Positions 43,790 through 63,688 of a stretch of DNA of 64,000 nt are shown in pieces. The stretch is taken from assembly GCF_902459525.1 (NCBI RefSeq), contig NZ_LR699166.1, positions 659,501-723,500 on the forward strand. The letters run 5' to 3'. Source of the DNA: Sideroxydans sp. CL21. GTDB lineage: Bacteria; Pseudomonadota; Gammaproteobacteria; Burkholderiales; Gallionellaceae. The notes under the pieces were generated by a model that worked only from the letters and a program-made list of their open reading frames with translations, was not told the origin of the DNA and searched no databases. Positions within the stretch are counted from its first letter, which is position 1, and each line of letters begins with the position of its first letter. Both the position numbers and the translations under genes were made by a program.

Positions 43790-43816
43790 GAAACCGTGGT
43801 ACGTCCCCTATTGTTC
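43790..43816. repeat. 27-bp direct repeat, copy 2
   Basis: Second copy of the GAAACCGTGGT...GTCCCyTATTGTTC element found at 41692-41718, with 3 mismatches over 27 bases. It overlaps the end of the DUF2971-like gene. Confidence 0.55.
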
Positions 43817-44839
43817 TAACAAGAGGAATTCTTCAATCAGAAATAGTGGTCTGTCCCTGAATATTTTCGCCCCCAATAGTTCTTTAAAAAAAGGTACCTC
43901 GCTTAGTTCCGACGTACTTACTTTTACTTTAATGCCGTATTTCTCATTCACATCGTTTACTAAACCGATGAGCCAATCGGGAGCTTTGGGCGAAACAAAG
44001 ACTTCCTCAATCAGAACATCCAGATTGCAGGGCACCACCTTGCCCATGTCCTTGCACTCAAAGTCCATGATCAAAGCTCGTACTTCTCTTTCATGTTCAA
44101 AGGATTTTCTTTTCCTCCAGAATGCGTCATTTACCCCAGCGTATTCTTTCTTTAGGTCTATGTATCGCACACGACCGATGCTTATCGAGGGGTCCCGGCC
44201 AAGTGCGCTGTATAGACTCTTATATGTTGTTCTAACAGCAACGGCGTTGGCCAAGAAACTCGAATAGAGTCGCCACATGGCTTCTGATTCATGTTCGCTC
44301 TCATGCCAGCAGCTGACGAAAACTCTTTTCTTGTGTGCTTCTCCGCCGCTTTCAAGATCGCTGAGAAGCTTGTTCGCAAGTTGTTCTACTTCTTTCTCGG
44401 AAAGTTCGCACTTATTTCCTTCAGGCGGATTCTTGATTGCGCTACAAAAAAAATCAAAATAGTGAGCATCCCATTTTTCTTTATTTTTCCTTAAGCCTTT
44501 AGCTCCTTCAAAGGTGTCCTCGAAGCAGTCTGTGCGAGTGAAATACAATCCACGAGACGAAAGTAAGCTTACATATTTTGTGAAATCCATATAGCGCCAG
44601 AGTTTGCACTGTGGCGTTGGTACATCATACGGCCGAGGTGAATAGTATCGCTTTATGGTGGGTTCTTTGAGTAATCGAGTGCATTTATCACAGACATACA
44701 ATGGTGCATCGGAGTTGTCGTATCCAAGATTGGCCGTATCACCTTTTTTAAACTTATAACCGCACGCCACGCAAACACCATGATTTTCAAATTCCATTCG
44801 GCGAAGTTCAGTAGTAAACCCATTCGTCATTTTTTCCAT
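43808..44839 (-). CDS. zinc-ribbon plus DUF2971-like protein
   Basis: This 343-residue protein is noticeably more AT-rich than its neighbours, suggesting recent transfer. A CxxC...CxxC zinc ribbon (CVACGYKF, CDKCTRLL) lies at ~23-54. From ~80 the sequence WRYMDFTKYVSLLSSRGLYF, RTDCFEDTFEGAKG, VSCWHESEHESEAMW resembles DUF2971, a family of unknown biochemistry often found in mobile or defence-associated regions. It is monocistronic. The HNH-like first part is a zinc ribbon only; no nuclease His is evident. Confidence 0.65.
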   Translation of the reverse strand: MEKMTNGFTTELRRMEFENHGVCVACGYKFKKGDTANLGYDNSDAPLYVCDKCTRLLKEPTIKRYYSPRPYDVPTPQCKLWRYMDFTKYVSLLSSRGLYFTRTDCFEDTFEGAKGLRKNKEKWDAHYFDFFCSAIKNPPEGNKCELSEKEVEQLANKLLSDLESGGEAHKKRVFVSCWHESEHESEAMWRLYSSFLANAVAVRTTYKSLYSALGRDPSISIGRVRYIDLKKEYAGVNDAFWRKRKSFEHEREVRALIMDFECKDMGKVVPCNLDVLIEEVFVSPKAPDWLIGLVNDVNEKYGIKVKVSTSELSEVPFFKELLGAKIFRDRPLFLIEEFLLLEQ

Positions 44840-44893: not shown

Positions 44894-47389
44894 TTAGACC
44901 AGCTTCTTCAACTGATAAATCAGCTCCAGCGCTTCCTTCGGACTCAACTCATCCGGTTGCAAATCGCGCAGTGATTGCAACACCGGATGCTCTTCCGGTT
45001 CCGGCAGTTCCGGTTTCTTGTCGAACAGGTCGCCCTGCAGATTTTGCGCGGCGCTGTTCTGTTCCAGTTTGAGCAGTTGCTTCTTCGCGGCGCGGATGAC
45101 GTCGTTGGGCACGCCTGCCAATGCGGCGACTTGCAGGCCGTAGCTCTGGCTGGCAGCGCCTTCGTTAACAGAGTGCAGGAAGACGATGCTGTGCTGGTGT
45201 TCGATGGCGGCGAGGTGGACGTTGGCGAGCTGAGCGAATTCTTCGGCCAGCCGCGTGAGTTCGAAATAATGCGTGGCGAACAGGGTGTAGCTGCGGTTCT
45301 TTTCCAGCAGGTGGCGCGCGATGGCGTAGGCGAGGGCGAGGCCGTCGAAGGTGCTGGTGCCGCGCCCGATCTCGTCCACCAGCACCAGGCTCTTCTCGGT
45401 GGCGTTGTGCAGGATGTTGGCGGCCTCGGTCATCTCGACCATGAAGGTGGAGCGCCCGCTGGCGAGGTCGTCCGATGCGCCGATGCGCGTGAAAATCTGG
45501 TCGATCTCGCCCAGCACCGCAGCCTGTGCGGGAACGAAGCAGCCGACATGCGCGAGCAGCGCGATGATGGCGACCTGACGCATGTAGGTGGATTTACCGC
45601 CCATGTTGGGGCCGGTGATTAGCAGCGTGCGGCGCGCGTCGTTGAGCGTGGTGTCGTTCGGCGTGAACTGATCGACTTGCGCTTCCACTACCGGATGCCT
45701 ACCTTTGGCGATGTTGATCCGCGCATCGTCGGCGAATTGAGGAGCGCTGAAGTTCAGCGTGGCGGCGCGTTCGGCGAAGGTGGCGAGCACGTCCAGTTCG
45801 GCGATGGCGGCGGCGATGCGCTGCAGTTGCGGGATGAACGGCGCGAGCTGGTCCAGCAATTGTTCGTAGAGAAATTTTTCGCGCGCCAAAGCGCGGTCGT
45901 TGGCGGAAAGCGCCTTGTCCTCGAAGGCCTTCAGTTCCGGCGTGATGTAGCGCTCGACGTTCTTCAGCGTCTGGCGGCGGCGGTAGTCGTCCGGCACTTT
46001 GTCGGCGTTGGCGAAACTCACCTCGATGTAGAAGCCGTGCACGCGGTTGTATTCCACCTTCAGCTTGTCGATGCCGGTGCGGGCGCGTTCGCGCAGTTCC
46101 AGCTCCATCAGGAAATCGCCGCAGTTGGTCTGGATGCCGCGCAGTTCGTCCAGTTCGGGGTCGAAGCCGTCGGCGATTACGCCGCCTTCGCGGAGGATGG
46201 AGGACGGTTCGGGTTTGAGGGTTTTTTGGAGCAACTCGACCAATTCATTTCCCGTTCGCCCTGAGCTTGTCGAAGGGTTGACGGGCGTGCCCGCCGGGAG
46301 GGAATTCTCAGGTCCGCCGGCGCGTTGCGCCGATCCTTCGACAGGCTCAGGACGAACGGACAGAAGGAACGCATCGGCCAGTTGCCGGATGAGTGTGGCA
46401 TCACTCTTCCCCAGCGCGGCGTGGAGTTGAGGCAAGGTCAGCAACGTATCGCGCAGACCCGAAAGGTCGCGCGGACGGGCGCTGCGCAGGGCGATGCGGG
46501 CGGTGATGCGTTCTACGTCGACGCTAGGATTCAGGTGGTCGTGGACTTGGGGGTAAAGCTCCCTCGCCCCTTGGGAGAGGGTTGGGGTGAGGGAATGTTC
46601 AGTGAGTACCTCACCATTTCTTCCCTCACCCCCAGCCCCTCTCCCGGAGGGCGAGGGGAGCAGGAGTTGTTCCACCGCATCCAGTCTGGCTTGCAGCGTA
46701 GCTCGGTCGCGTAGCGGATGATGCAACCAGTTTGCCAGCAGACGGCTGCCCATGTTGGTGGCGCAGGTGTCGCGCAGCGCCAGCATGTGTGTGGAGTATT
46801 CGTCGAGCTCGGACAGAATGTGCGAAGACACCAGCAGGGTCATTCCGTCGGCCTGCAGCTGGCGGAACAATGTGGCCAAGCTGGCGCGCGCTTCGGGATC
46901 GAGGCCGGACGCGGGTTCGTCCAGCAGCAGCACTTTGGGCTGGTGGATGATGGCCTGACCGATGGCGACGCGCTGGCGCAGGCCGCGCGACAGGCTGCCA
47001 CTGGTCTGCTGCAGGCGGTCGATCAGGTTAAGCTGCCGTGCCGTGCGCTCGATCGCGGCGGGGATGTCGGCTTCCGGCAGGCCTTGCGCGGCAGCGGCGT
47101 ATTCCAGGCAGCGTGCCACGGTGAGGTCCTGGTAGAGACCGAAGAAATCCGAGAGGTAACCCATGACGCGGTGCACGTCGCGAGTCCGGTCGCTGACATC
47201 CATGTCGGCAACCGTGATGGTGCCCGTGAGCGGTGTCTCCAGTCCGGCGATGCAGCGCATCAGCGTGGTCTTGCCCGCACCGTTGGGGCCGACCAGTGCG
47301 GTGACGCTGCCGTTGGCGACGGTCAGTGTCACATCGTTGAGTGCGCGATGGCCGGGGTAGTCGAAGGTGAGATTGGTTATTTCGATCAT
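44894..47389 (-). CDS. ABC ATPase fused to MutS lacking mismatch-recognition domains
   Basis: An 831-residue open frame. Residues 1-~205 are an ABC-2-type transporter ATPase: Walker A GPNGAGKT (34-41), signature SLSRGLRQR (132-140), Walker B VLLLDEP (153-159), switch His region SSHIL. At [13 protein letters not shown] (~46769) it turns into MutS domain III, then clamp (domain IV) and the MutS ATPase ([10 protein letters not shown] 592-601; [10 protein letters not shown] 671-680) and the C-terminal dimer region. MutS domains I and II, with the Phe-x-Glu mismatch reader, are absent. Two palindromic repeats are read through in frame at residues ~243-277 and ~344-383. It may be an in-frame deletion, decay or an assembly join. 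Confidence 0.8.
46253..46358. repeat. in-frame palindromic repeat inside mutS part, element 2
   Basis: Arms CGTTCGCCCTGAGCTTGTCG (46253-) and CCTTCGACAGGCTCAGGACG (46335-) form an inverted repeat, 22 of 24 positions pairing. This is the common betaproteobacterial palindrome read as VRPEPVEG...[10 protein letters not shown] in protein. It interrupts MutS domain III without breaking the frame. Confidence 0.75.
46561..46659. repeat. in-frame palindromic repeat inside mutS part, element 1
   Basis: The element runs from CCCTCGCCCCTTGGGAGAGG to CCGGAGGGCGAGGGG, with TTGGGGTGAGGG pairing to CCCTCACCCC. It is a dispersed repeat translated here as [12 protein letters not shown]...[11 protein letters not shown]. 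It adds ~35 residues to MutS domain III and leaves the frame open. Confidence 0.75.
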
Positions 47390-47418
47390 TGCGGTTTCTT
47401 TATGGTTCGTTCGGTCAG

Positions 47419-48069
47419 TCAGGAGATTTTAACCACGATGTCGTGCAGGCGGTTGGCGCATAGCGCCATGTTCTCGGCGGCATTGGTCAGGTGCCGGTAG
47501 ATCTCGCGGCGCTTGAACATGTTGATGTAGTCGCTGCCCTCGAACAAGATGGGCAGTGCCACGCGGTACAGCTTCTCGGCGTGGCGTTCGGCCTTGCGCG
47601 CCTCGTCTGCGTTCAGTGCGGCGGTGGCGGGCGTAGTGCCCAGTTTGGCAAAGCCGTTGGCCAGCGCATCGACGCCTTCCTTGATGCAATGCGAGATGTC
47701 GCGCATGAATGCATCCGGCGTGACGCCGAGCACGTCCATCTCGTGCACTGTGGTCTTGCAGTACATCACGATCTCGTCGAGTGCAAAGATGGCACGGTAG
47801 ATGTCCTCACGGTCAATCGGGGTGGAGAAGGCGTCGTTGAGTTCGTGCAGGTTGCGCATCTTGATGAGGTCGGCTTCATGCACGTCCAGCTTGAGCGTCT
47901 CGGCGATCTTCGGGTCGCCGTGTTCCATGTATTCGACCAGCAGGTTGACGGTCTTCGCGACCATGATGGTCTGTTCGGTGAGCATGTGGAAGAAGTCGGG
48001 CACCTTGGGGAAGACCCTGTCCAGGATTCTTGCAAGCAGGGTTTTGGAAGCTTCGGGCATGGGGTTCAC
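47419..48069 (-). CDS. PhoU-like DUF47 accessory protein of Pit transporter
   Basis: This 216-residue all-helical DUF47/PhoU-like protein includes [34 protein letters not shown] and [29 protein letters not shown] at the end. Its start (GTG at 48069 or ATG at 48060) abuts the stop of the pit gene, so they form an operon. Such proteins are thought to regulate the low-affinity phosphate transporter. Confidence 0.88.
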
Positions 48070-49104
48070 TCAGGTAAATGCGCGGACGAGAAGATAGCAG
48101 CAAATCGACATCAATGCCGCGCCGGGTATGGTGATCAACCAGGTGGTGGCGATCTCGAAGGCCTTGTTCCAGCGCACGGCTTTGGGCCGTTCGGAGGCGC
48201 CGATGCCCATGATGGAAGAGGCGACCACGTGGGTGGTGGAGACGGGTGCGCCGAACAGCGATGAGCTGAAGATGACAGTGGCCGCAGTCATCTGCGAATC
48301 CAGCGCATGCAGCGGGCGGATCTTGTAGATGGAAAAGCCCAGCGTGCGCACGATCTGCCATCCGCCGGAAAGGATGCCCAGCGTGATGGCGCAGGAGCAG
48401 ACGACGATCACCCACAGCGGCACTTCAAACGTCGGGATGAAACCGCCTAGCAGCAGCACCAGCGTCAGGATGCCCATGCTCTTCTGAGCATCGTTGGCGC
48501 CGTGCGAGAAAGCGAGTCCGGCCGAGGTGACGAATTGCAGGTGGCGCAGGTCGCGGTTGATGGACGGATGGGCGCCGCGCAGCAAGCGCAGCATGATCTT
48601 GTGCAGCACGAAGCCGACCCAGAAACCGATGATGGGCGAAAGGATCAGGGCGGCGACCACTTTGGTGACGCCGTTCAGTTCGCCGTGCAACAGGTCGCCG
48701 AATCCCCAGGCGACATGGTCGGCCCCGGTAGCGACCACCACCACGCCGGCCAATCCGCCCACCATGGCATGCGACGAAGAGGAAGGGATGCCGCGCCACC
48801 AGGTCAGCAGGTTCCATGCGATGGCGCCGACCAGGCCGCACAGCACGATGGTCAGGGACAGTTCGCGGTCGAGATCGTCCAGCGTGATGAGCTTGCCTAT
48901 GGTGTTGGCGACCGCCGTGCCACCCAGCAGCGGGCCGAGGAATTCGAAGAAGGCCACCAGCACAACGGCCTGCACCGGCGTCATCGCGCGCGAGGCGATG
49001 ACCGTGGCGATGATGTTGGCGGCGTCATGGAAGCCGTTGGTGTACTCGAAGATCAGGACGATGAGGATGGTCGCGATCGCGAGGACGAATAGGGTGGACT
49101 CCAT
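48070..49104 (-). CDS. pit: Pit-type inorganic phosphate transporter
   Basis: This 344-residue membrane protein has ten or so helices and the PiT signatures FEYTNGFHDAANIIATVIAS near residue 20 and FSHGANDAQKSMGIL (~200). It carries out low-affinity phosphate (or metal-phosphate) uptake by ion symport. It is shorter than the E. coli PitA (499) because the central loop is small, which is common for this subfamily. It is the first gene of the pit-DUF47 operon. Confidence 0.93.
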   Translation of the reverse strand: MESTLFVLAIATILIVLIFEYTNGFHDAANIIATVIASRAMTPVQAVVLVAFFEFLGPLLGGTAVANTIGKLITLDDLDRELSLTIVLCGLVGAIAWNLLTWWRGIPSSSSHAMVGGLAGVVVVATGADHVAWGFGDLLHGELNGVTKVVAALILSPIIGFWVGFVLHKIMLRLLRGAHPSINRDLRHLQFVTSAGLAFSHGANDAQKSMGILTLVLLLGGFIPTFEVPLWVIVVCSCAITLGILSGGWQIVRTLGFSIYKIRPLHALDSQMTAATVIFSSSLFGAPVSTTHVVASSIMGIGASERPKAVRWNKAFEIATTWLITIPGAALMSICCYLLVRAFT

Positions 49105-49131
49105 GTCGGCGGGAGGAGGGCTTGTTCAGCG

Positions 49132-49929
49132 TCAGGCTTTGAGTCCCGGGGTCAGGTGCGGCGCAATGATCTCGAGCAATTGCGGGTGGATGAAGGGATT
49201 GCCCGCGCATACATGGCCGCTCTGGAGGAAGCCATCCGTTCCTTGCAGGTCGCTGACCATGCCGCCCGCTTCGGTAATCAGCAGGCATCCGGCGGCCATG
49301 TCCCAGGGTTTGAGACCTGTCTCGAAGAAACCGTCATAACGGCCTGCTGCTGTCCATGCCAGGTCCAGCGAGGCTGCACCGGGCCGGCGCAGTCCGGCAC
49401 TCTTCTGCATGACGTCTTTGAAGACGCCGAGGTAGGCGTCCATATGCTGCATATTCGAATAGGGGAAGCCGGTGCAGATCAGGCTGTCGGCCATTTCCTT
49501 GCGCTTGCTCACGCGCAAACGCTTGTCGTTGAGGAAGGCGCCGCGGCCGCGCGTGGCGGTGAACAGGTCGTTTTTGGTCGGGTCGTAGATGACAGCCTGG
49601 GTCAGCACGCCGTTGTGCTGCAGTCCGATGGAGACGGCATATTGCGGAACGCCGTGCAGGAAATTGGTCGTACCGTCGAGAGGGTCGATGATCCAGACGT
49701 ATTCCGACTGGCCTTGGGCGCCGCTCTCTTCTGCTAGAATTGCGTGGCTCGGATAGGCGTCATGCAGGGCTTCGATGATGATGCGCTCGGCGGCGCGATC
49801 CACTTCGCTGACGTAATCCGCATGGGATTTTTTGGTCACGGTGAGGTGGTCGAGATTATCGCCGGCACGGTAGATCAATTTGCCTGCGCGAATAGCGGCC
49901 TTCACCGCGATGTTGAGCATGGGGTGCAT
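49132..49929 (-). CDS. suhB: inositol monophosphatase family protein SuhB
   Basis: This 265-residue Mg-dependent phosphatase has LAEESGAQ (Glu metal ligand), [17 protein letters not shown] and [17 protein letters not shown] motifs. SuhB also associates with rRNA antitermination complexes in E. coli. Length and motifs are normal. It is divergent from trmJ, with a 62-base gap. Confidence 0.94.
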
Positions 49930-49991
49930 ATCAGTACGACCTTTTTAATGAGCTGGGGAAATCCGGCGCGTATTTTAGTTGGTATTGCGTT

Positions 49992-50879
49992 TTGAATAAA
50001 CCTAATAGTTTTGGGTGCGAGGGGGTCGCTGCAGAGCAGCGGGGTTCCCTTCGGCCTCCCCATGTGCGAGAGGGTGATGCTGAAAGCATCGGGTCCCCCT
50101 CGGCCTCCCCACTGCGGGGATACGGGGACAACATCCGTGTGGTGCTCAGTCACACCACCCATCCCGGCAACATCGGTGCAGCTGCACGGGCGATGAAAAC
50201 GATGGGGCTGCAACATCTGTATCTCATCAATCCGCGTTATTTCCCCGATCCGCAGGCGTCTGCAATGGCAGCTGGGGCGGACGACATCCTGCTGAATGCC
50301 GTGGTGTGCAAATCGATCGACGAGGCATTGCAGGGCGTGGTGTTCACCGTGGCGATGACGGCGCGCCTGCGCGATATCTCCATCGCGGTGAAAACGCCGC
50401 GTGAGGCGATGCCGGAAGTGTTGCTGCAGGCCGCGACGCACCCTGTGGCCTTGTTGTTTGGCACCGAGATGTCCGGCCTGACCAACGAGGAGATGGGTAA
50501 AGCACAGCTGGGGGTGAACATTCCGGCGCATCCCGACTTTTCTTCGCTCAACATCGCCGCTGCGGTACAGGTGGTCGCTTATGAACTGAGTGTGGCGGCG
50601 GAAAGCTACAGGCTGGTCTTGCCCGAGATCGAACCTGCCACGCATGAGCGGGTCGAAGGTTTATATGCCCATCTGGAAAAGACGCTGTTCGAGATCGGTT
50701 TCTTCACCACGCAGAACCCGGCGCGGCTGATGCAGCGCCTGCGCCGCCTGTACTCGCGTACCCGCTTGGAGGATGAGGAGATCAACATTCTGCGCGGTAT
50801 GCTGACTGTGGCAACCGAGTACAATGCCCGTCTGAAAAAACGTTATGCGGAAGAGCATCCGGATGTTCAAGAACATTAG
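49992..50879 (+). CDS. trmJ: TrmJ, tRNA Cm32/Um32 methyltransferase
   Basis: This 295-residue SPOUT-class methyltransferase modifies C32/U32 of tRNA using SAM. The conserved part begins [20 protein letters not shown] at residue ~47 and continues to [13 protein letters not shown] (SAM-binding knot) and [14 protein letters not shown]. The N-terminus, starting at a TTG codon, contains ~35 residues encoded by a 49-bp tandem repeat. A GTG at 50139 or nearby could instead start the protein just before the conserved domain, leaving the repeats in the leader. The end overlaps cysE by 17 bases. Confidence 0.9.
50015..50112 (+). repeat. 49-bp tandem direct repeat at trmJ 5' end
   Basis: Two adjacent 49-base units each begin GTGCGAG and end CGGCCTCCCCA(T/C). 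Within each is a short hairpin, GCTGC-AGA-GCAGC in the first and GATGCT-GAA-AGCATC in the second, so the pairing is kept though the arm bases differ. It is read in frame with trmJ from the TTG start, or lies in its leader if the start is later. Confidence 0.8.
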
Positions 50880-51594
50880 AGAAGACATCTCCAGCGTATT
50901 CGACCGCGATCCGGCGGCGCGCACCACCTTTGAGGTGATCACCTGCTACCCCGGCTTGCACGCGCGCATCTTCCATCGCTTAACCAACACGCTGTGGCAC
51001 GCCAATTTCAAGTGGCTGGCACGTTTTATTTCGCATATTGCACGCGGATTTACCGGCATCGAGATCCATCCGGGCGCGACTATCGGGCGGCGATTCTTCA
51101 TCGACCACGGAATGGGTGTGGTTATCGGGGAAACTGCAGAGATTGGCGACGATGTCACTATGTATCATGGTGTTACGCTGGGCGGAACGTCGTGGAAAGA
51201 GGGCAAGCGCCATCCGACCTTGGGCAACGGCGTGGTGATCGGGGCGGGTGCGAAGATTCTGGGCCCTATCCATATTGGCGACGGCGCGAAAATCGGGTCC
51301 AACGCAGTGGTAGTTAAAGATGTGCCGGCAGGTGCCACAGCGGCAGGGATTCCTGCGCGAATTCTGGATGAAGAAAAGAAAATTCCCTCTGGATTCAATG
51401 CATACGGTGTTGGGAATGACAAAGACGATCCACTTTCCAAAGCCATCCACGGCCTGTTGGGGCATAGCGTCACGGTTGATCAGCGCATAGAATTTATTCT
51501 GCAGCAGTTGGAAAAGATGGGTGTGCGTGTAGAAGAAGAGCGGGCGACCGCCGATAAGTTCGATCCAAAACATTTGAATAAAATTGTTGATTAA
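50863..51594 (+). CDS. cysE: serine O-acetyltransferase
   Basis: This 243-residue CysE makes O-acetylserine for cysteine synthesis. After an N-terminal helical domain, a hexapeptide left-handed beta-helix runs through [39 protein letters not shown] and [19 protein letters not shown]. The short length is like the SAT form that often precedes iscR, supplying cysteine to IscS. The ATG at 50863 overlaps trmJ. Confidence 0.94.
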
Positions 51595-51615
51595 AAGAAT
51601 CGGGTATTCTATGAT
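51583..51615 (+). promoter_or_regulatory. isc promoter with type-1 IscR-like box
   Basis: TTGATT (51587-51592), a 17-bp spacer and TATGAT (51610-51615) form a good sigma-70 promoter 77 bp upstream of iscR. A 25-bp stretch (51583-51607) overlapping its -35 and spacer matches the E. coli type-1 IscR consensus at 21 of 25 positions. It overlaps the cysE stop, so the site sits at the gene end. This implies autorepression of the isc operon by [2Fe-2S]-IscR. Confidence 0.7.
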
Positions 51616-51691
51616 GTCCGTAAGTTTTTGAGGGATTAAGCGGACAGTCGTTTGTCCATCTTGTTTGAATTTTTGAGAATAGGGGAAAGTT

Positions 51692-52165
51692 ATGAGACTC
51701 ACAACCAAAGGACGGTTTGCGGTAACAGCAATGGTTGATCTGGCAATGCGTGGCGGCAAAGGTCCTGTGACATTGGCAGGCATCAGCGAGCGGCAGAAGA
51801 TATCGCTCTCTTATCTGGAGCAATTGTTTGGCAAGCTGCGCAGGAATAATGTGGTGGCCAGTGTGCGCGGCCCGGGCGGCGGCTATTGTCTGGCACGTCC
51901 GGCGAACAAGATTTCCATGGTCGATATCATCACTGCCGTAGATGAGGCGCTGGATGCCACAAATTGCGGAACGAAAGGTAATTGCGATAACGGCAAACCT
52001 TGTCTGACACATGATTTGTGGTTCGGCCTGAACGAGTCGATCCACGAATATCTGGGCAAGATCAATCTGCAGCAACTGGTGGATGGACAGAGCAAAGCCG
52101 GTGCTTCGGATTCGTCTCCCATCATGATGCCGAAAAGCGAAACCTCATCGCGTGTGACCGCGTAA
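51692..52165 (+). CDS. iscR: IscR, Rrf2-type iron-sulfur regulator
   Basis: This 157-residue Rrf2 protein starts MRLTTKGRFAVTAMVDLAM, with a winged helix and dimerisation helix. The cluster ligands lie in CGTKGNCDNGKPCLTH (three Cys and the His). With a [2Fe-2S] cluster it represses isc, and without one it activates other promoters. AGGGGAAA precedes the ATG. It is the first gene of the isc operon, 125 bases before iscS. Confidence 0.96.
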   Translation: MRLTTKGRFAVTAMVDLAMRGGKGPVTLAGISERQKISLSYLEQLFGKLRRNNVVASVRGPGGGYCLARPANKISMVDIITAVDEALDATNCGTKGNCDNGKPCLTHDLWFGLNESIHEYLGKINLQQLVDGQSKAGASDSSPIMMPKSETSSRVTA

Positions 52166-52290
52166 TAGACAACCGGTCATTTGACGGCCTGGCAAAAGGC
52201 TTTGCACAGCTGTCACGCCAAGTTGGCAAACTGCGCCAGTGCGTTGTTGCTTAACGCCGGGTAAGTCGCTGGTTATTAGGAGAAGATGAA

Positions 52291-53505
52291 ATGACGTTGC
52301 ACCTGCCTATCTACATGGATTATTCCGCAACCACGCCGGTCGATCCGCGCGTTGCAGCGGCGATGATTCCGTACCTGACCGAGAAATTCGGCAACCCAGC
52401 TTCGCGTTCGCATTCGTTTGGATGGGTCGCGGACGAGGCGGTGGAACGGGCACGCGACCAGGTCGCGGCTCTGGTCAACGCCGATCCGAAGGAGATCGTG
52501 TGGACGTCGGGTGCAACTGAATCCAACAATCTTGCGCTGAAGGGTGCGGCGAATTTCTACGCCGACAAGGGCAAGCACATCGTTACAGTTCAGACTGAAC
52601 ACAAGGCTGTGCTCGATACGGTGCGTGAACTGGAGCGTCAGGGTTTTACGGCCACTTACCTCGATCCGGAACCGAACGGTCTGATCGATCTGGAGAAGCT
52701 CAAGGCGGCATTGCGCCCCGACACCGTCATCGTTTCGGTGATGTATGTGAACAACGAGATCGGTGTGATACAGGATATCGCGGCTATCGGCGAAATATGC
52801 CGCGAGCGCGGCATTCTGTTCCATGTTGATGCGGCGCAGGCGACCGGCAAGGTGGTGATCGATCTGCAAAAGCTCAAGGTCGACCTGATGAGCTTCTCGG
52901 CACACAAGACCTACGGCCCGAAAGGCATCGGTGCGCTTTATGTGCGCCGCAAGCCCCGCGTTCGTCTGGAAGCCCAGATGCACGGCGGCGGGCATGAACG
53001 CGGTTTTCGCTCGGGCACGCTGGCGACACACCAGATCGTCGGCATGGGCGAGGCATTCCATATCGCCAAAATGGAGATGGCGACCGAGAACGAGCGCGTG
53101 CGCATGCTGCGCGACCGCTTGTGGAAAGGCCTGTCCGGCATGGAAGAGGTTTACCTCAACGGCGACATGGAACAGCGTGTGCCGCACAATCTGAATGTGA
53201 GCTTCAACTTCGTCGAAGGCGAATCGCTCATCATGGCGGTGAAAGACATCGCGGTTTCCAGCGGCTCGGCTTGTACTTCCGCCAGCCTGGAGCCATCATA
53301 TGTATTGCGCGCCTTGGGACGCAACGACGAACTGGCGCACAGCTCCATTCGTTTCACTGTGGGGAGATTCACCACTGTAGAAGAGGTGGATTTTGCAGTG
53401 AAACTATTGCAGGAAAAGATTGCCAAACTTCGCGACCTCTCTCCTTTGTGGGAGATGTTCAAAGACGGAGTGGATTTGAATTCAGTGCAATGGGCCGCAC
53501 ATTAA
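52291..53505 (+). CDS. iscS: cysteine desulfurase IscS
   Basis: This 404-residue PLP enzyme removes sulfur from cysteine to give IscS-persulfide for Fe-S and tRNA thiolation. It has [10 protein letters not shown] (PLP-Lys), TEHKAVLD (PLP-stacking His region) and the mobile active-site loop [17 protein letters not shown] with Cys. AGGAGAAG precedes the ATG. The gene is full length for IscS. Confidence 0.98.
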
Positions 53506-53519
53506 AAGCAGGTTACGGA

Positions 53520-53580
53520 ATTCAGGATACGGGATACAGCCAAGCTGGTATTACCGAATCCTTTATCCCGTATCCTGAAT
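53520..53580. repeat. 17-bp perfect inverted repeat between iscS and iscU
   Basis: ATTCAGGATACGGGATA at 53520-53536 and its exact complement TATCCCGTATCCTGAAT at 53564-53580 are separated by 27 bases. It sits in the iscS-iscU gap. No T run follows and the operon continues, so a REP-type or mRNA-stabilising hairpin is likelier than a terminator. Confidence 0.75.
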
Positions 53581-53594
53581 CCTAGGAGAAATTT

Positions 53595-54011
53595 ATGGCT
53601 TACAGCAATAAGGTATTGGATCACTACGAAAATCCACGCAATGTTGGCACGCTGGATAAAGAGGACGAGTATGTGGGTACCGGCATGGTCGGCGCGCCTG
53701 CATGCGGCGATGTGATGAAGTTGCAGATCAAAGTGGGCAAGGACGGCATTATCGAAGATGCCAAGTTCAAGACATACGGTTGCGGCTCGGCTATCGCTTC
53801 CAGTTCGCTGGTCACCGAATGGGTGAAGGGCAAGACAGTGGATCAGGCATTGGGGATCAAGAACACGCACATCGCCGAAGAATTGGCGTTGCCGCCGGTG
53901 AAGATACACTGCTCCATTCTGGCTGAAGATGCGATCAAGGCGGCCGTTGCGGATTACAAGGCCAAACATGGCGCGACGGTGGAGACCGCGGCTTGTAACG
54001 GCAATAAATAA
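53595..54011 (+). CDS. iscU: IscU, Fe-S cluster scaffold
   Basis: This 138-residue scaffold has Cys residues in GAPACGDVMK and YGCGSAIAS, the LPPVKIHCSIL motif (HscA recognition, with the third Cys) and EHYENPRNVG-type N-terminus (LDHYENPRNVG). It assembles clusters received from IscS and delivers them through HscA/HscB. TAGGAGAAA precedes the ATG. Confidence 0.98.
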   Translation: MAYSNKVLDHYENPRNVGTLDKEDEYVGTGMVGAPACGDVMKLQIKVGKDGIIEDAKFKTYGCGSAIASSSLVTEWVKGKTVDQALGIKNTHIAEELALPPVKIHCSILAEDAIKAAVADYKAKHGATVETAACNGNK

Positions 54012-54025
54012 ATTAGGGATACGAA

Positions 54026-54349
54026 ATGACGATCTCGTTGACAGAAAGTGCGGCACAACATGTGCAAAATTTCCTGGCCAAGCGCGGCAAAGGCGTAGGC
54101 CTGCGCCTTGGCGTGCGTACCAGCGGTTGCTCCGGCATGGCTTACAAGCTGGAGTTCGCCGACGCGGTTGATAGTGAAGACCTGCAATTCGTCAGCAACG
54201 GTGTGACGGTACTGGTGGATCAGCACAGTCTGCCTTACATCGACGGCATGGAGCTGGATTACACCCGTGAGGGATTGAACGAGGGTTTCAAGTTCAACAA
54301 TCCGAATGTCAAGGATGCTTGCGGTTGCGGGGAAAGTTTCAAGGTTTGA
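54026..54349 (+). CDS. iscA: IscA, A-type Fe-S carrier
   Basis: This 107-residue protein has the three conserved Cys of A-type carriers: [15 protein letters not shown] and the C-terminal [11 protein letters not shown]. It receives clusters or iron for delivery to targets. The stop overlaps the hscB ATG (TGATG). Confidence 0.97.
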
Positions 54350-54891
54350 TGGATATCCTTAACTCGGATTTTCAGCAGGACTTCTTCCAGCTCTTCAACC
54401 TTCCAGCAGTATTCAAAATCGATAGCGCCGCGCTGGAGCGGAGTTTCCTTGGGCTGCAGGCGCAAGTCCATCCGGACAAATTCGCCCATCTCTCCGATGC
54501 GGAGCGCCGCCTTTCCATGCAGTGGGCGACGCGCGTGAATGAAGGGTACCAGACTCTGCGCAATCCTCTGAATCGCGCTCGCTACCTGTTGCTGCAGCAT
54601 GGGGTGGATACGCAGGAAGAAAGCAATACCGCGATGCCTGTCGATTTTTTGATGCAGCAGATGGAATGGCGCGAAGCGCTGGAAGCCGCGAAACAGGCGA
54701 AAGACACCTCGGCGCTGGATGAACTGGAACAGCGCATGCAACATCAAGTGCGGATTTTGCAACAACAACTCAGCATTGATATCGACGACACTCGCGATTA
54801 CGCGGCCGCTTCCGGTATAGTGCGCAAGCTCAAATTTCTTGAGAAACTGGCGGAAGAAATCGGCTCCGCATTCGACGAATTAGATTCTTAA
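54349..54891 (+). CDS. hscB: HscB, J-type co-chaperone
   Basis: This 180-residue J-protein has an N-terminal J domain with HPD ([16 protein letters not shown]) and a C-terminal three-helix bundle that binds IscU. It stimulates HscA. The chosen ATG overlaps the iscA stop, and an upstream in-frame start is not needed. HscA follows 2 bases after the stop. Confidence 0.95.
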
Positions 54892-54893
54892 AA

Positions 54894-56762
54894 ATGGCAC
54901 TGTTGCAGATTGCAGAACCCGGCCTTAGCGCCGCTCCCCACGAACACCGGCTGGCGGTCGGTATCGACCTCGGCACGACCAATTCCCTGGTGGCAACAGT
55001 ACGCAACGGTATCAGTACCGTGCTCAACGACATCGAAGGTTGTGCATTGCTGCCCTCGGTAGTGCGTTACGCAACTGACGGCAGCGTTCAGGTCGGCCAT
55101 GCGGCGCAGGCCGTGCAGAGTGAAGACCCGCAAAACACGATCGTTTCGGTGAAGCGCTTCATGGGGCGCGGCCTGAAAGATGTGGGTGAGGTCGGCAACC
55201 TGCCTTATCGCTTTGTCGATGCGCCCGGCATGCTGCAATTGCGCACAATTGCCGGTGCGAAGAGCCCGGTAGAAGTCTCGGCCGAGATACTCAAGGTATT
55301 GCGTGAGCGCGCGGAACTTTCACTGGGCGGAGAACTGGTTGGTGCCGTGATCACCGTGCCTGCCTACTTTGACGATGCGCAGCGCCAAGCCACCAAGGAT
55401 GCCGCCAGGCTGGCCGGACTCAACGTGCTGCGCCTCCTGAACGAACCCACCGCCGCAGCCATCGCCTACGGCCTGGATAACGCTGCCGAAGGCGTGTATG
55501 CGGTGTTTGACCTGGGCGGCGGCACCTTTGATATTTCCATCCTGAGGCTTTCCAAAGGCGTGTTCGAAGTGCTGTCCACCAATGGTGATTCGGCGTTGGG
55601 CGGCGACGACTTCGACCATCGCATCTACTGCTGGATGCTGGAAAACGGCGGCATATCTGCACTGAGTGCGCATGACACGCGTCTTTTGCTCACGAATGCG
55701 CGCACTGCCAAGGAGCAACTTACCGAGTATCCGCAGGCGAAGATCACCGCGATATTGGGCGGTGGCGACCTCGTGGATCTGACGCTCAAGCGCGAGGCAT
55801 TCTACGAGATGACGCAGAACCTCGTTGCCCGCACCCTGCAGGCGACACGCCGCGCTTTGCGCGATGCCAAACTGAAAGTCGAGGACATCAAGGGTGTCGT
55901 CATGGTGGGCGGCTCCACCCGTATGCCGCAGGTGCAGCATGCGGTGGGCGAATTCTTTGGGCAGGCACCGCTGAACAATCTGGATCCGGACAAAGTCGTG
56001 GCTTTGGGTGCCGCCATACAGGCGAATGTGCTGGCCGGCAACCGCAGTGCGGACGAGTGGCTGTTGCTGGACGTGATCCCGCTCAGTCTGGGCATCGAGA
56101 CCATGGGCGGGCTGGTGGAGAAGATCATCCCGCGCAATAGCACGATACCCAATGCGCGTGCGCAGGAATTCACGACCTACAGGGATGGCCAGACCGCGAT
56201 GAGCATCCATGTGGTGCAGGGTGAACGCGAGCTGGTGAGCGATTGCCGTTCTCTGGCGAAATTCGAGCTGCGCGGCATCCCGCCCATGGTGGCCGGTTCC
56301 GCGCGCATCCGTGTCACTTTCCAGGTGGATGCCGACGGCCTGCTCAGTGTCTCAGCGCGGGAGATGGCCAGCGGAACTGAAGCAAGTATCGTGGTGAAAC
56401 CCTCTTATGGCTTGAGCGACGAGGAAATATCCCGCATGCTGCAGGACTCAACCCGGCATGCGCGCGATGACATGGTGGTCCGCGCATTGCGCGAATTGCA
56501 GACCGAGGCGGCTCAATTACTGGATGCTGTGGGAAATGCCCTGCAACAGGATGGCGACGCGCTGCTGGATGAAGTCTCTCAGGCGCGTATCCGCAACAGC
56601 ATGGATGCATTGCGTGCGGTGCTTGAGGGAGACAATCAGCAGACTATCAAACGTGCTGTAGAGGCATTGAACCTGGCTTCGACCGAATTCGCGCAACTCC
56701 GTATGGATAAAAGCGTAAAACATGCCCTGGCCGGGCACAAACTATCGGAGTTGGAGGACTGA
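54894..56762 (+). CDS. hscA: HscA, Hsp70 for Fe-S transfer
   Basis: This 622-residue Hsp70 has the nucleotide-binding motif [26 protein letters not shown] and [13 protein letters not shown], and a substrate-binding half with a shorter C-terminal lid. It binds the LPPVK motif of IscU and drives cluster release with HscB. Its position after hscB and before fdx is standard. Confidence 0.97.
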
Positions 56763-56763
56763 T

Positions 56764-57108
56764 ATGACACAGATCATTGTCTTGCCGCATGTGGAGTTGT
56801 GCCCCAAGGGCGCGTTGTTCGAGGCCGAACCCGGCATATCCATCTGCGATGCATTGCTGGCGCACAATATCGAGATCGAACACGCCTGCGAAAAGTCCTG
56901 CGCCTGCACCACCTGTCACGTTATTGTGCGCGAAGGATTCAAAAGTCTGGTAGAAGCAACGGACCAGGAAGAAGATCTGCTGGACAAGGCATGGGGGCTG
57001 GAAGCCAATTCGAGACTGAGTTGCCAGGCCCTGGTCGGCAAGCAGGATCTGGTGGTCGAGATACCCAAGTACACCATAAACATGGCGAAGGAGGGACACT
57101 CCAAATGA
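56764..57108 (+). CDS. fdx: Isc-type [2Fe-2S] ferredoxin
   Basis: This 114-residue ferredoxin has four cluster Cys: CEKSCACTTCHVIV and, near residue 88, RLSCQAL, the adrenodoxin-type pattern. It provides electrons for cluster assembly. It begins 1 base after the hscA stop. Confidence 0.96.
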   Translation: MTQIIVLPHVELCPKGALFEAEPGISICDALLAHNIEIEHACEKSCACTTCHVIVREGFKSLVEATDQEEDLLDKAWGLEANSRLSCQALVGKQDLVVEIPKYTINMAKEGHSK

Positions 57109-57250
57109 GAGCACCCATAAATTTACTGCGCAATCCGATAGCCGCGATGCGCGGTGCTCATTCCTCACCTATCTATTTGATAGGTTTCGTTCATTGCGCT
57201 CCGTGCGCCTTGCTCTCGAATTGCTCGTTACAATTTACTGGGGCTCTCAT

Positions 57251-57445
57251 ATGAAATGGATAGACGTGCGCGACATAGCGATCGCACTGGCTGAGAAACA
57301 TCCGGATATCGACCCGAGCAAGGTCCGCTTTGTTGACCTGCATAACTTTGTCGTCGACCTCGAAGGGTTCGATGACGACCACAGCCGCGGCGGCGAGAAG
57401 GTGCTCGAAGCCATTCAGACTGCGTGGATGGACGAGGCGGAATGA
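57251..57445 (+). CDS. iscX: IscX, small Isc accessory protein
   Basis: This 64-residue acidic protein reads MKWIDVRDIAIALAEKHPDI, DPSKVRFVDLHNFV, DDDHSRGGEKVLEAIQ, the IscX pattern. It binds IscS and iron and modulates cluster assembly. The 142-base gap before it holds nothing that I can support, though an upstream frame runs through it. It is last of the isc genes here. Confidence 0.95.
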   Translation: MKWIDVRDIAIALAEKHPDIDPSKVRFVDLHNFVVDLEGFDDDHSRGGEKVLEAIQTAWMDEAE

Positions 57446-57446
57446 T

Positions 57447-57950
57447 ATGCTGAAAATCTGGGACGCCATATCCAGGCGCTGGCTGTATCTGATCGGCGCA
57501 CTGGTCGTGGCCATCCTGTTTTGTTCGGCGCTTTACCTGCAATATGTGCTGCGCCAGGATCCATGCCCGTTGTGCATGGTGCAGCGGGTAATCTTCATTG
57601 CCATCGGTGCGCTTTTCTTCATCGCCGCCCTGCTCAACTCGGGGCCGATCGGCAGCCGGATCTATTCGGTCCTCATAGCTCTCTTTGCCCTGGGAGGCGT
57701 GGCAGTCGCTTCGCGGCATATCTGGATACAGCATCTGCCCAAAGACCAGGTACCAGCGTGCGGGCCTGGTCTCGATTTCATGCTGAAGCACTTCCCGATG
57801 TCCGAAGTATGGCAGGAGCTGATGCACGGCTCGGGCGAATGTGCCGCAAAGGGATGGACATTCCTGACCCTCGGTATTCCGGAGTGGTCGCTGGTCTGGT
57901 TCGTGTTGCTGGGGATATTCTCTATTCTGGTCGGCTGGAAAAAACGCTGA
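57447..57950 (+). CDS. dsbB: DsbB, quinone-linked disulfide oxidase
   Basis: This 167-residue protein has four membrane helices and two periplasmic Cys pairs: DPCPLCMVQR after helix 1-2 and PACGPGLDF with GECAAKGW in the second loop. It reoxidises DsbA by passing electrons to quinone. It follows iscX with a one-base gap, so it is probably transcribed with the isc operon. Confidence 0.95.
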   Translation: MLKIWDAISRRWLYLIGALVVAILFCSALYLQYVLRQDPCPLCMVQRVIFIAIGALFFIAALLNSGPIGSRIYSVLIALFALGGVAVASRHIWIQHLPKDQVPACGPGLDFMLKHFPMSEVWQELMHGSGECAAKGWTFLTLGIPEWSLVWFVLLGIFSILVGWKKR

Positions 57951-58196
57951 TCAGGCGGTGATTCTCGCCACCACGCGTCGCACGAACGGCGCGACCACCA
58001 GCACGGAAGGAAAGGCGACAGGCCACGCTGTGATGAACCCCCTGAACCAGCGCGCAAAAAATTGCGGGTCATACCCCTGATTGATGAGTGTCACCGTGCC
58101 CGAAATGATGGTGACCATGATGATGGAGAGCATGCCCCCGAAAAGCAGATTGCTGTAGCGCGCCGGTATTTTCATCTGGGATTTCCTATAGAGCAT
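57951..58196 (-). CDS. DUF2798-family small membrane protein
   Basis: Up to 81 residues (a shorter form starts at the ATG at 58175). Two helices (LLFGGMLSIIMVTIISGTVT, FRGFITAWPVAFPSVLVVAPF) match DUF2798. Function is unknown. It is convergent with dsbB, whose stop is adjacent, and overlaps the end of the next minus-strand gene by 11 bases if the longer start is used. Confidence 0.7.
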   Translation of the reverse strand: MLYRKSQMKIPARYSNLLFGGMLSIIMVTIISGTVTLINQGYDPQFFARWFRGFITAWPVAFPSVLVVAPFVRRVVARITA

Positions 58197-58560
58197 GCCA
58201 GGGTGCCGGGTTGTGCGTCACGGCCACGCCCACGATGTAAAAGAACGCCAGTTGTGCCGCCAGCCAGGCAAGGAGCCGGATGCGCTTCGATTTGCCGTAT
58301 TTCAGCGCAAACGCACCGATGACGATATAAAACAGCAGGGCGATGATCTTGGCACCCAGCCACGGGCTGGAGAGCGGCGAAATGCCGAGCTGCCACGCAA
58401 GTGCAATAGCGCTTGCCAGCAGCAAGGTGTCGACCATATGCGGTGCGATCTTGACCCATCGCCGGTGCAGCAAGGAAGAGTCGCGCAACATCCATATTCC
58501 GCGCAGAAAAAACAGCGAGTAACTGAGTGCCACACATGTGATGTGGATGTGTTTGAGCAT
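58186..58560 (-). CDS. SirB2-family membrane protein
   Basis: This 124-residue protein with about four helices reads MLKHIHITCVALSYSLFFLR, LHRRWVKIAPHMVDTLLLA, LRLLAWLAAQLAFFY, the SirB2 pattern. Function is unknown; members may be linked to heme or envelope function. The ATG at 58560 is chosen, and an upstream one 12 bases earlier is possible. Confidence 0.75.
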   Translation of the reverse strand: MLKHIHITCVALSYSLFFLRGIWMLRDSSLLHRRWVKIAPHMVDTLLLASAIALAWQLGISPLSSPWLGAKIIALLFYIVIGAFALKYGKSKRIRLLAWLAAQLAFFYIVGVAVTHNPAPWHAL

Positions 58561-58626
58561 TGAGGTATCCAAATTACCGAAGGGCGGCGATCATGCCGCC
58601 CGGTGCCAAATGTGCAAGAACGGTTT

Positions 58627-59142
58627 CTAGAAGCGCCTGACCATGATGCGGCGCAGCAGATTGTCTTTCACGACGAACTGGTGATACAGCGCCGCGACGA
58701 CATGGAATGCAACCAGCAACAGCATGAGGCCGATGAACAGCTCGTGGAATTCCTTGGCATCGACCTTGTCGAAGTCCGGAATCAGATTGGGGTCGCCCTT
58801 CTTCAGCGCTTCGATCACCCCGGAGGTCGCGGCTGTTGCAACACCTGAGACCGCAACGGCAATGAGCGAAAGGTTCAGCAGCACGTGGGTTCCCGCAGCG
58901 ATCTTGTTCAACAAAGGATTGGCGTTGGCCGGAGCGGGTTCGCCGTCCTTTTTCCTGAAATAGATGCGCAGCAGGACAAGCAGCAAAACCAGATCGCCGA
59001 TCAGGAAATGCACCGGAAACATTGAAAGTTTCTGCGCGGTGTTCTTGCTTTCATCCAGATTATGGCCGAGATAGAGGGCTGCTATCACAAGCAGAAAGAT
59101 CAGCCAATGGATGAAGGCACTGCGTTTGCTGTATTGCTTCAT
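58627..59142 (-). CDS. cytochrome b561-like membrane protein
   Basis: This 171-residue four-helix protein has heme-ligating His in AFIHWLIF, FPVHFLIG, AGTHVLLNL and LLVAFHVVAALYHQF, the b561 pattern. It would move electrons between quinol and periplasmic carriers or superoxide. It begins with the ATG at 59142, and an upstream frame has no such motifs. It is a single-gene unit. Confidence 0.88.
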   Translation of the reverse strand: MKQYSKRSAFIHWLIFLLVIAALYLGHNLDESKNTAQKLSMFPVHFLIGDLVLLLVLLRIYFRKKDGEPAPANANPLLNKIAAGTHVLLNLSLIAVAVSGVATAATSGVIEALKKGDPNLIPDFDKVDAKEFHELFIGLMLLLVAFHVVAALYHQFVVKDNLLRRIMVRRF

Positions 59143-59209
59143 GATTCTGTCCTTGTATTGGAGATTGCTTTTTCGCATTGTAGCGCATGGGCAAGGCTTG
59201 CAAAATTCT

Positions 59210-60463
59210 TCAGGAATCGCCTTGCATTTGGCCGGATTGCCGTAACCAGTCCAAGACGCCTTTGCCGGCGGCAAAGCCGCTGGCAAAACACGCACTGAGC
59301 AAATAACCGCCAGTGGGTGCTTCCCAATCCAGCATTTCACCCGCGCAGAAAACGCCGGGCAGGTTTTTGAGCATCATCTTTTCATCCAAGGCTGCAAAAG
59401 TGATGCCGCCGGCAGTGCTAATGGCTTCGCTCAACGGACGCGCTGAAATGAGGAGGAGCGGCAAGTCTTTAATGGTGTGTGCCAGCAATACCGGATCGTG
59501 CATTTGCCCGGCACTCAATATTTCGCGCAGCAAGTTTGCCTTCACGCCTTTCAATCCAAGGCGGCTTTGCAGGTGGCTGGAAAGCGAGCGAGAACCGCGC
59601 GGATGCGACACTTCGATTTGCACTCTTTGCAGCGACCAATCCGGCAACAGATCGAGATGCAATGTCGCATGGCCGGTGCGTTCGATCTCGTCGCGCAGCG
59701 CGGCAGAGTGCGCATAGATCAAACCGCCTTCGATGCCCTGTTCGGTAACGACGCATTCGCCTTGTCTGCGCACGTCGCCAAAAGCGGCAGCGACAGACTT
59801 GAGGGGTTCGCCGACAAAGTGTTTACGGAAGTACGGGCTCCACTCGACATCGAAGCCGCAGTTGGCCGGGCGCAACGGTGCGATGGGAATATCGCGTTGC
59901 GACAGCAGGGGCACCCATGCCCCGTCCGAACCGAGTTGCGGCCAACTGCCTCCACCCAAGGCCAATACCACGGCATCTGCATTTACAGTGTGTTCGACTT
60001 CCGGTGTGGCAAAACGCAACGCACCCGTATCATTCCATCCGCACCAGCGATGCCGGACATGAAAATGCACGCCGCTCTCGCGCAAACGATGCAGCCAGGC
60101 GCGCAGCAGAGGCGCGGCTTTGATGTCGGCAGGGAAGACGCGGCTGGACGTGCCGACGAAAGTGTCGATACCGAGACCGTGTACCCATTCGCGCAATTTA
60201 TCTGGAGGAAAATCGCGCAAAAGCGGTTCGATATCCGGACGACGTGTGCCGTAGCGGGTGAGGAATATATCAAACGGTTCGGCATGGGTGATGTTCATGC
60301 CGCCTTTGCCTGCCATCAGGAATTTGCGCCCCAGGCTGGGCATCGCGTCATATAAGTCGACGCGCGCTCCGCCTTTAGCCAATACTTCCGCCGCCATCAA
60401 TCCGGCAGGGCCGCCGCCTATGATGGCGACAACAGGGGCAGGCAAAGAATTGCTCGAAGTCAT
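59210..60463 (-). CDS. YhiN/HI0933-family flavoprotein
   Basis: This 417-residue FAD protein has PVVAIIGGGPAGLMAAEVLAK (about 10-30), GRKFLMAGKGGMNITHAEP, LALGGGSWPQLGSDG, GGITFAALDEKMM and CAGEMLDWEAPTGGYLLS. It belongs to the HI0933-like NAD(P)/FAD oxidoreductases, whose substrate is unknown. The start at 60463 is chosen over a longer upstream frame because it gives the usual N-terminus. It is divergent from rhlE. Confidence 0.85.
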   Translation of the reverse strand: MTSSNSLPAPVVAIIGGGPAGLMAAEVLAKGGARVDLYDAMPSLGRKFLMAGKGGMNITHAEPFDIFLTRYGTRRPDIEPLLRDFPPDKLREWVHGLGIDTFVGTSSRVFPADIKAAPLLRAWLHRLRESGVHFHVRHRWCGWNDTGALRFATPEVEHTVNADAVVLALGGGSWPQLGSDGAWVPLLSQRDIPIAPLRPANCGFDVEWSPYFRKHFVGEPLKSVAAAFGDVRRQGECVVTEQGIEGGLIYAHSAALRDEIERTGHATLHLDLLPDWSLQRVQIEVSHPRGSRSLSSHLQSRLGLKGVKANLLREILSAGQMHDPVLLAHTIKDLPLLLISARPLSEAISTAGGITFAALDEKMMLKNLPGVFCAGEMLDWEAPTGGYLLSACFASGFAAGKGVLDWLRQSGQMQGDS

Positions 60464-60584
60464 ATGCGGGAAGGTCTTGTTATGGCAGGCGATTATAGGG
60501 CTTAACGGCTGCTCCGGCCGGTATTGGCGCAGGAGCGTATAATGTGACAATCAAGACCCCGAATAATACGAAGAGAACGATATA

Positions 60585-61949: not shown

Positions 61950-61964
61950 TACTCCACTGCTGGA

Positions 61965-62861
61965 ATGTCCGTCGCGCAAACCATCATTCCGATCTTTTTG
62001 CTGATCCTGCTCGGTGTTGCCATGCACCACTGGTTCGGCATGCGCGAAGATTTCTGGCCGCAACTGGAACGCCTGATCTATTACGTGTTCTTTCCCGCGC
62101 TGCTGTTCAATTCCCTCTCTCATTTCAAGATCGATCTGGGCGCTGCGATGCCGATGCTGATCGTTGCCATGCTGTACATGCTTGCAGGTATAGCGTTGGG
62201 TTACGCCGCGAAATTCCTGTTTCATGCGCCGTCCAAAGTATTCGCTGCAACGTTCCAGTCGTCATTTCGTTTCAATAGTTATGTCGGTCTCGCCATCGCG
62301 GGAGGCATGCACGGACAAGACGGTCTCGCCGCTATCGGCTTGCTGATGGGTTTCATGGTCCCCGTCGCCAATGTTGCAGCGGTGTTGGCGCTGGCACGCC
62401 ACAGTGAAAGCCACTGGCTCAAGGAGATATTGAGCAATCCCTTGATCCTCTCCACCGCAAGCGGTATCGCCGTGAGTTTTTCAGGTCTGGAGTTGCCTGT
62501 GCTGCTCAATGCCACGCTGGGTCTGTTGTCGCAGGCCTCGCTGCCGATGGGGTTGATCGCCGTCGGTGCGGGACTGCGTTTGCAGGGCTTGCACAGTCAT
62601 CTTGGTACCTTGTGGTATGGCGTGGTGATCAAACTGCTGGTGTTGCCCGCAATCGCGTGGGGATTGGCCAGGGCGTTCGGATTGAGCGGCGTGTATTTCA
62701 ATATCGCCGTATTGATGGCTGCACTGCCGGTATCCACCGTATCCTACGTGCTGGCGAGGCGCATGGGCGGCGATGGAGATACTATCGCCGCCCAGGTGAT
62801 GCTGAGCACATTGCTGGCCGCGTTGACGCTACCGTTGTGGTTGCTGTTGATGGGGTTGTGA
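61965..62861 (+). CDS. AEC-family transporter
   Basis: This 298-residue protein has ten or so helices of the auxin-efflux-carrier family (MSVAQTIIPIFLLILLGVAM, FQSSFRFNSYVGLAIAGG, MAALPVSTVSYVLARRMG). In bacteria these export organic acids such as malonate or malate. It begins 15 bases after rhlE, probably co-transcribed. No substrate can be fixed. Confidence 0.85.
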   Translation: MSVAQTIIPIFLLILLGVAMHHWFGMREDFWPQLERLIYYVFFPALLFNSLSHFKIDLGAAMPMLIVAMLYMLAGIALGYAAKFLFHAPSKVFAATFQSSFRFNSYVGLAIAGGMHGQDGLAAIGLLMGFMVPVANVAAVLALARHSESHWLKEILSNPLILSTASGIAVSFSGLELPVLLNATLGLLSQASLPMGLIAVGAGLRLQGLHSHLGTLWYGVVIKLLVLPAIAWGLARAFGLSGVYFNIAVLMAALPVSTVSYVLARRMGGDGDTIAAQVMLSTLLAALTLPLWLLLMGL

Positions 62862-62891
62862 GCAAGAAATTCCGGGCAAAGCAACAGCGTT

Positions 62892-63686: not shown

Positions 63687-63688
63687 GG

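What the first reader, a model, noticed from the sequence alone, without database searches (positions are those of the whole stretch)
44894..47389. ABC ATPase-MutS chimera without mismatch-recognition domains
One open frame of 831 codons joins an intact ABC-2-type ATPase (residues 1-~205) to MutS from domain III onward. The Phe-x-Glu mismatch reader and connector domain are missing. Both nucleotide-binding sites (GPNGAGKT and [10 protein letters not shown]) keep their motifs. The join, [13 protein letters not shown], falls where both parents plausibly have L-x-x-D, so an in-frame deletion between two neighbouring genes, removing the ATPase tail, its permease and the mutS 5' end, is the simplest origin. 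If real, the strain may be a mutator, or the protein may be a new two-ATPase DNA-binding machine.
Basis: partly seen in the sequence, partly recalled or inferred. Interest (0 to 1): 0.85.

Follow-up and report, generated by a model that had tools for sequence, protein, structure and literature searches.

The report
Deletion fused transporter and repair genes
In this bacterium a 2.5-kilobase deletion joined the front of a transporter gene to the back of the DNA mismatch-repair gene mutS, which most likely leaves the cell without mismatch repair; the joined protein itself looks like a by-product and not a new machine.

Summary
In detail: window 47389-44894 (minus strand) is one 831-codon frame, ABC_tran then MutS_III (cut), IV and V, without MutS domains I and II. 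Relatives explain it. G013 and G007, of the same genus, carry ATPase, permease and full-length mutS in the same order and strand. Against them the window lacks 2,491 or 2,485 bp, from a GAC codon in the ATPase gene to one in mutS; both ends share CGAC, 10 of 11 bases. The lost permease and MutS domain I have no match in the one-contig, 99.98%-complete genome (control), and this is its only mutS. mutL is intact. Best reading: a deletion at a microhomology that happened to keep frame, inactivating mutS (no mismatch reader) and the exporter. A mutator phenotype is predicted but left no visible trace: the lineage's substitutions lack the spectrum of mismatch-repair loss and 22 homopolymers are unchanged, so the event is probably young. 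The two-ATPase machine reading has no positive support: the fusion was not seen in the other genomes (54 of 61 had a match) or in the 80 loci.

The parts
44894..47389 (-). 831-codon fused reading frame (ABC ATPase N-terminal part + MutS C-terminal part)
46769..47389 (-). ATPase-derived part, residues 1-207; 92% (G019) and 94% (G013) DNA identity to their ATPase genes
44894..46768 (-). MutS-derived part, residues 208-831 and stop (most of domain III, IV, V, C-terminus)
46769..46772 (-). CGAC shared by both parents at the deletion ends (within an 11-base stretch matching at 10 positions)
   Evidence: comparison with G013 and G007
47267..47290 (-). Walker A of the ABC part, GPNGAGKT, residues 34-41
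   Evidence: direct reading of the translation
45587..45613 (-). Walker A of the MutS part, GPNMGGKST, residues 593-601
   Evidence: direct reading
46573..46643 (-). in-frame inverted repeat pair inside MutS domain III
   Evidence: 2 matches, 0.02 expected
46255..46356 (-). second in-frame inverted repeat pair inside MutS domain III
   Evidence: 2 matches, 0 expected; also in the mutS of 9 of 25 other genomes
47419..48069 (-). neighbour upstream: DUF47/PhoU_div protein; flank that stays collinear with relatives
48070..49104 (-). neighbour upstream: PHO4 phosphate transporter; collinear flank

Best explanation
A deletion of about 2.49 kb between two short matching sequences removed the last third of an ABC ATPase gene, its permease gene and the first 285 or so codons of mutS, and by chance (1 in 3) kept frame. 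Shown by comparison: the gene order in relatives, the ends, the absence of the deleted genes from the genome. Inferred: the remaining MutS piece cannot read mismatches (the Phe-x-Glu domain is gone), so MutL is not recruited to errors and the cell is a mismatch-repair mutant; the exporter is dead too; the joined protein, made from the ATPase gene's start, is a by-product. The event is probably recent on the scale of the species' divergence.
For: ATPase, permease and mutS neighbouring and on one strand in G007 (one contig) and in G013 (contig C36; the ATPase there is cut by the contig end); G019 has the ATPase and permease beside the same flank. The window aligns to both sides with one gap of 2,491/2,485 bp, and the ends share CGAC, 10 of 11 bases. 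MutS_I is absent in own, present in 28 of 34 genomes of the genus and in 20 of 21 of good quality, own being the exception; the other 5 without it are 62-79% complete. Permease absent in own but found by the same query in 5 of 6 chosen relatives. One mutS only. Flanks collinear.
Against: No reads could be examined. G029, the nearest of the 11 relatives (up to 94% DNA), has a contig end before this locus and no mutS or permease match (64% complete), so the state before deletion is known only from G013, G019 and G007. The expected mutator signature is not visible. The frame is open and the MutS remnant shows no relaxed selection: own-specific amino-acid to silent changes 10:29 against 10:37 in G013, none of the 10 between residues 558 and 783. 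This fits a young deletion, but also a protein that still does something.
Confidence: 0.85

Rival explanations
1. Assembly error: the strain has separate ATPase, permease and mutS genes and the assembler dropped the 2.49 kb between.
For: No reads available. Draft genomes of this genus have contig ends near or inside these genes.
Against: The two joined sequences share only 4 exact bases at the join (10 of 11), too few, by general knowledge, to make an assembler collapse. The lost permease and MutS_I have no match elsewhere in a one-contig genome.
Confidence: 0.09
2. A functional new protein: two ABC-class ATPases in one chain with MutS clamp and dimer parts, kept by selection for a role other than mismatch repair.
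For: 831 codons open, both Walker A motifs kept, no relaxed selection in the MutS remnant.
Against: Seen in one genome only: of 61 genomes searched, 54 had a match at E <= 1e-60 and only own has the query covered end to end in one place (a fusion with a distant ABC domain would not be listed at that threshold). The three longest MutS frames, G007, G021 and G017, are full MutS frames without GPNGAGKT. All 80 loci kept of 594 match from residue 174 or later. The ABC part lost its C-terminal third and its permease. The AlphaFold model has mean pLDDT 48.9 and says nothing either way.
Confidence: 0.04
3. A MutS of the MutS2 kind: a branch that never had the mismatch reader.
For: Lacking MutS domains I and II resembles the MutS2 layout (recalled).
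Against: NCBIfam scores it as MutS1 (721.1 bits, cut-off 641.7) and far under the MutS2 cut-off (180.4 bits against 400). The gene at the same place in G007 has all five domains.
Confidence: 0.01

Closest known systems
MutS1 (DNA mismatch repair protein MutS, TIGR01070)
   Same: Residues 208-831 correspond to the C-terminal two thirds of genus-mates' MutS, 83-91% identical over the six rows that reach back to the join; clamp, ATPase and C-terminus kept.
   Different: No mismatch-binding domain, no connector, domain III cut at its start; 207 foreign residues in front.
ABC exporter ATPase with its permease (G007: 310 + 435 aa)
   Same: Residues 1-207 are 97% identical to the G019 ATPase.
   Different: C-terminal third of the ATPase and the permease are gone.
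Natural mutS-null mutators, e.g. Vibrio splendidus 12B01 (PMC5296598, passages read)
   Same: A rearrangement in the 5' part of mutS removes the working gene.
   Different: There a mobile element excises and leaves a 2-bp frameshift; here a deletion at a microhomology makes an in-frame fusion. No search for a mobile element was made at this locus.

Membership tests
MutS1 mismatch-repair protein | Mismatch-binding domain I (Pfam MutS_I) | tested here: not met
   Absent from the protein and from the whole genome (11 of 14 control genomes ring).
MutS1 mismatch-repair protein | Connector domain II | tested here: not met
   No MutS_II, while G007's protein has it.
MutS1 mismatch-repair protein | Domains III-V with Walker A | tested here: met
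   (III from profile position 20 only); motif.
MutS1 mismatch-repair protein | Repairs mismatches | not testable with these tools
   Needs an assay; see next steps.
ABC exporter ATPase | ABC_tran domain with Walker A | tested here: met
   residues 17-160; motif.
ABC exporter ATPase | Full-length ATPase with a partner permease beside it | tested here: not met
   207 of about 310 residues remain; permease absent.
MutS2 | Score above the MutS2 equivalog cut-off | tested here: not met
   180.4 bits against 400.
Long-lived mutator lineage (mismatch-repair loss) | Excess of both transition classes and of homopolymer indels on the lineage | tested here: not met
   Own vs G029: GC>AT 751 vs 507, AT>GC 318 vs 308, transversions 429 vs 386; 0 of 22 runs of 5 or more bases changed length (low power). 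Expected pattern from P. aeruginosa, PMC4702332 passages. This speaks only against an old mutator, not against one now.

The most novel reading that the evidence does not exclude
The fused protein is made, dimerises through its MutS parts and uses two different ABC-class ATPase sites on DNA, giving the strain a working protein that is neither a transporter nor a mismatch-repair enzyme; the unrelaxed MutS remnant would be the sign of selection.
Probability: 0.04. Interest if true: 0.85.

Novelty: new member of a known kind. Interest (0 to 1): 0.35.

Why it matters
It is a clear natural case, with both ends resolved, of a bacterium (genus Sideroxydans or near it, inferred) with no complete mutS in a near-complete genome, while MutS domain I is kept in 20 of 21 good genomes of its genus. 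If the strain is in culture it would allow a test of how long an environmental mutator lasts. It also shows how a frame-keeping deletion can look like a new two-domain protein when no relatives are at hand.

Tried and rejected
Assembly artefact: considered; no long shared sequence at the join, lost genes without a match in the genome. Second mutS elsewhere: none. Old mutator lineage: tested by a three-genome comparison. Own-specific changes exceed G029's (1498 vs 1201 in 40,365 columns) and the excess is mostly GC>AT transitions. Columns within 5 of a gap and stretches that did not align in all three were dropped; one alignable stretch that I had left out was counted afterwards (4,572 columns: own 325, GC>AT 143, AT>GC 74; G029 239, 91, 70) and agrees. 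G+C is lower in own than in G029 and in G029 than in G013 in all three blocks. Small indels: one search lists 6 own and 11 G029 rows; most lie in poorly aligned stretches, and I count about one clean one each; the first, shorter test had listed 4 small ones for own and none for G029. I read all this as AT drift, not mismatch-repair loss. Ongoing decay of the fused gene: not seen. AlphaFold model: mean pLDDT 48.9, pTM 0.32, unusable, so no fold search was run; its alignment left out seven of own's other ABC ATPases that had misaligned. Longer MutS frames in G007, G021 and G017 were checked as possible other fusions and are not. Other broken mutS genes in the genus (G012, G027, G002) at first looked like further lesions; in G012 and G027 the stored sequence is unresolved at the break, and G002 is a 53%-complete draft, so no inference was drawn. 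G011, G001 and G031: the mutS piece lies near a contig end. Paper searches listed 15 of 84, 4 of 4, 10 of 88, 10 of 29, 10 of 18 and 6 of 13 papers; I noticed in the listings no report of this fusion or of mutS loss in Sideroxydans. Only passages of PMC4702332 and PMC5296598 were read.

Full report
What is there. Window 47389-44894 on the minus strand is one open frame of 831 codons. Its domains are ABC_tran (17-160), MutS_III (201-539, but only profile positions 20-194), MutS_IV (408-498) and MutS_V (590-776); MutS_I and MutS_II are missing. NCBIfam calls it MutS1 at 721.1 bits against a cut-off of 641.7. Two details change: the ATPase part is residues 1-207 of a protein that has 310 aa in G007, so it is not intact, and MutS starts after the residue aligned to D296 of the MutS chain of PDB 7ai6 (E. 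coli by recall), inside domain III.

The genome. The window lies in a one-contig genome of 3,772,857 bp, completeness 99.98, contamination 1.43. The only MutS in it is this one: of the 45 other matches of the chimera, 43 lie within residues 1-208 (ABC ATPases, inferred), one spans 13-239 and one only the repeat-derived residues 240-280. MutS_I has no match. mutL is there in a 614-aa frame.

Origin. In G007 the order is phosphate transporter, DUF47 protein, ATPase, permease, mutS, on one strand and one contig (families by likeness to the window's genes). G013 has mutS, permease and all but the start of the ATPase on contig C36, and its flank at the end of contig C21. G019 has the same flank, the ATPase and most of the permease on a short contig. 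Window 46769-49953 and, in two pieces, 44907-46785 align to the two sides of the same G007 stretch. The distance from the GAC codon in the ATPase gene to the GAC codon in mutS is 2,491 bp in G013 and 2,485 bp in G007. At the ends the two parents share CGAC exactly, and 10 of 11 bases in a slightly longer stretch. In G028, G014 and G003 the spacing (about 0.9 kb from flank to the join point in mutS) leaves room for the mutS start only, so the ATPase-permease pair is not universal in the genus.

Was it a fluke of assembly? The shared stretch is too short to make an assembler collapse (general knowledge), and the missing genes have no match elsewhere: the permease query found nothing in own while the same query found 5 of 6 chosen relatives (the miss, G029, is 64% complete). 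MutS_I is present in 28 of 34 genus genomes and in 20 of 21 good ones; the exception is own, and the other five without it are 62-79% complete. No reads could be tested, so a doubt of about one in ten stays.

Consequence. The domain that contacts the mismatch is gone, together with the connector and the first part of domain III; this is established knowledge of MutS (recalled) applied. Without it the protein should not find mismatches, and no other MutS was found that could replace it. The exporter has lost its permease. So the most likely result is a mutS-null strain that also lacks this exporter. That part is inferred.

Is the lineage an old mutator? I compared own, G029 and G013 over 40,365 aligned columns in three blocks beginning at window 50670. 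Own has 1498 lineage-specific substitutions, G029 1201. The excess sits mostly in GC>AT transitions (751 vs 507); AT>GC transitions are equal (318 vs 308) and transversions nearly so (429 vs 386). A further 4,572 columns agree. None of 22 homopolymer runs of at least 5 bases changed length. In P. aeruginosa lines without mismatch repair, transitions rise 592-fold on average, with AT>GC highest, and indels rise 230-fold, in homopolymers (PMC4702332, passages; the same passages say that Salmonella gave a different spectrum, so the expectation is not universal). Own does not look like that, so either the deletion is young or the effect is weak. G+C in the three blocks falls from G013 to G029 to own, which suggests plain AT drift.

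Is the fused gene kept or decaying? In MutS residues 381-831 own has 10 amino-acid and 29 silent changes of its own, G013 10 and 37. In the ATPase part own has 4 and 23, G019 1 and 17. Neither shows clear decay. A young deletion explains this; a kept function cannot be excluded but has nothing else in its favour. Of 61 genomes searched, 54 had a match at E <= 1e-60 and only own has the fusion; unusually long MutS frames in three relatives are not fusions with this ATPase; and the 80 loci kept of 594 all match from residue 174 or later. A fusion with a distant ABC domain would not have shown. The structure model is too poor to use.

Verdict. The thing is a natural, probably loss-of-function allele of mutS made by a deletion, a known kind of event, with an unusual by-product. 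The new-machine reading keeps about 4%.

Noticed in passing
46255-46356 and 46573-46643: Two kinds of inverted repeat pairs sit in frame inside MutS domain III; each pattern has its only two window matches (up to 3 mismatches) here. The first kind is also in the mutS loci of 9 of 25 other genomes checked (G013, G025, G014, G003, G021, G007, G005, G008, G027), and one arm has only 3 exact copies in the own genome. Full-length mutS genes therefore tolerate them.
   Followed up: partly
window 50670-64000 and G000:C1:723501 onward: The own lineage shows about 1.5 times as many GC>AT transitions as G029 (751 vs 507) with no excess of AT>GC; cause unknown.
   Followed up: partly
43808-44839 (-): 343-aa frame downstream of the fused gene with no Pfam match at 0.001.
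   Followed up: no
L039:5962-7269: The 435-aa permease-like partner of the ATPase has no Pfam match at 0.001, although relatives exist in other families of the order (G043 47%, G038 33% identity).
   Followed up: no
L038 and L131 (G013): In G013 contigs C36 and C21 both end at the start of the ATPase gene, so the join there is inferred from G019 and G007.
   Followed up: partly
L042 (G021), about 9935-10131: A second, 79% identical copy of the last 195 bases of mutS lies about 0.7 kb beyond the mutS end in G021.
   Followed up: no
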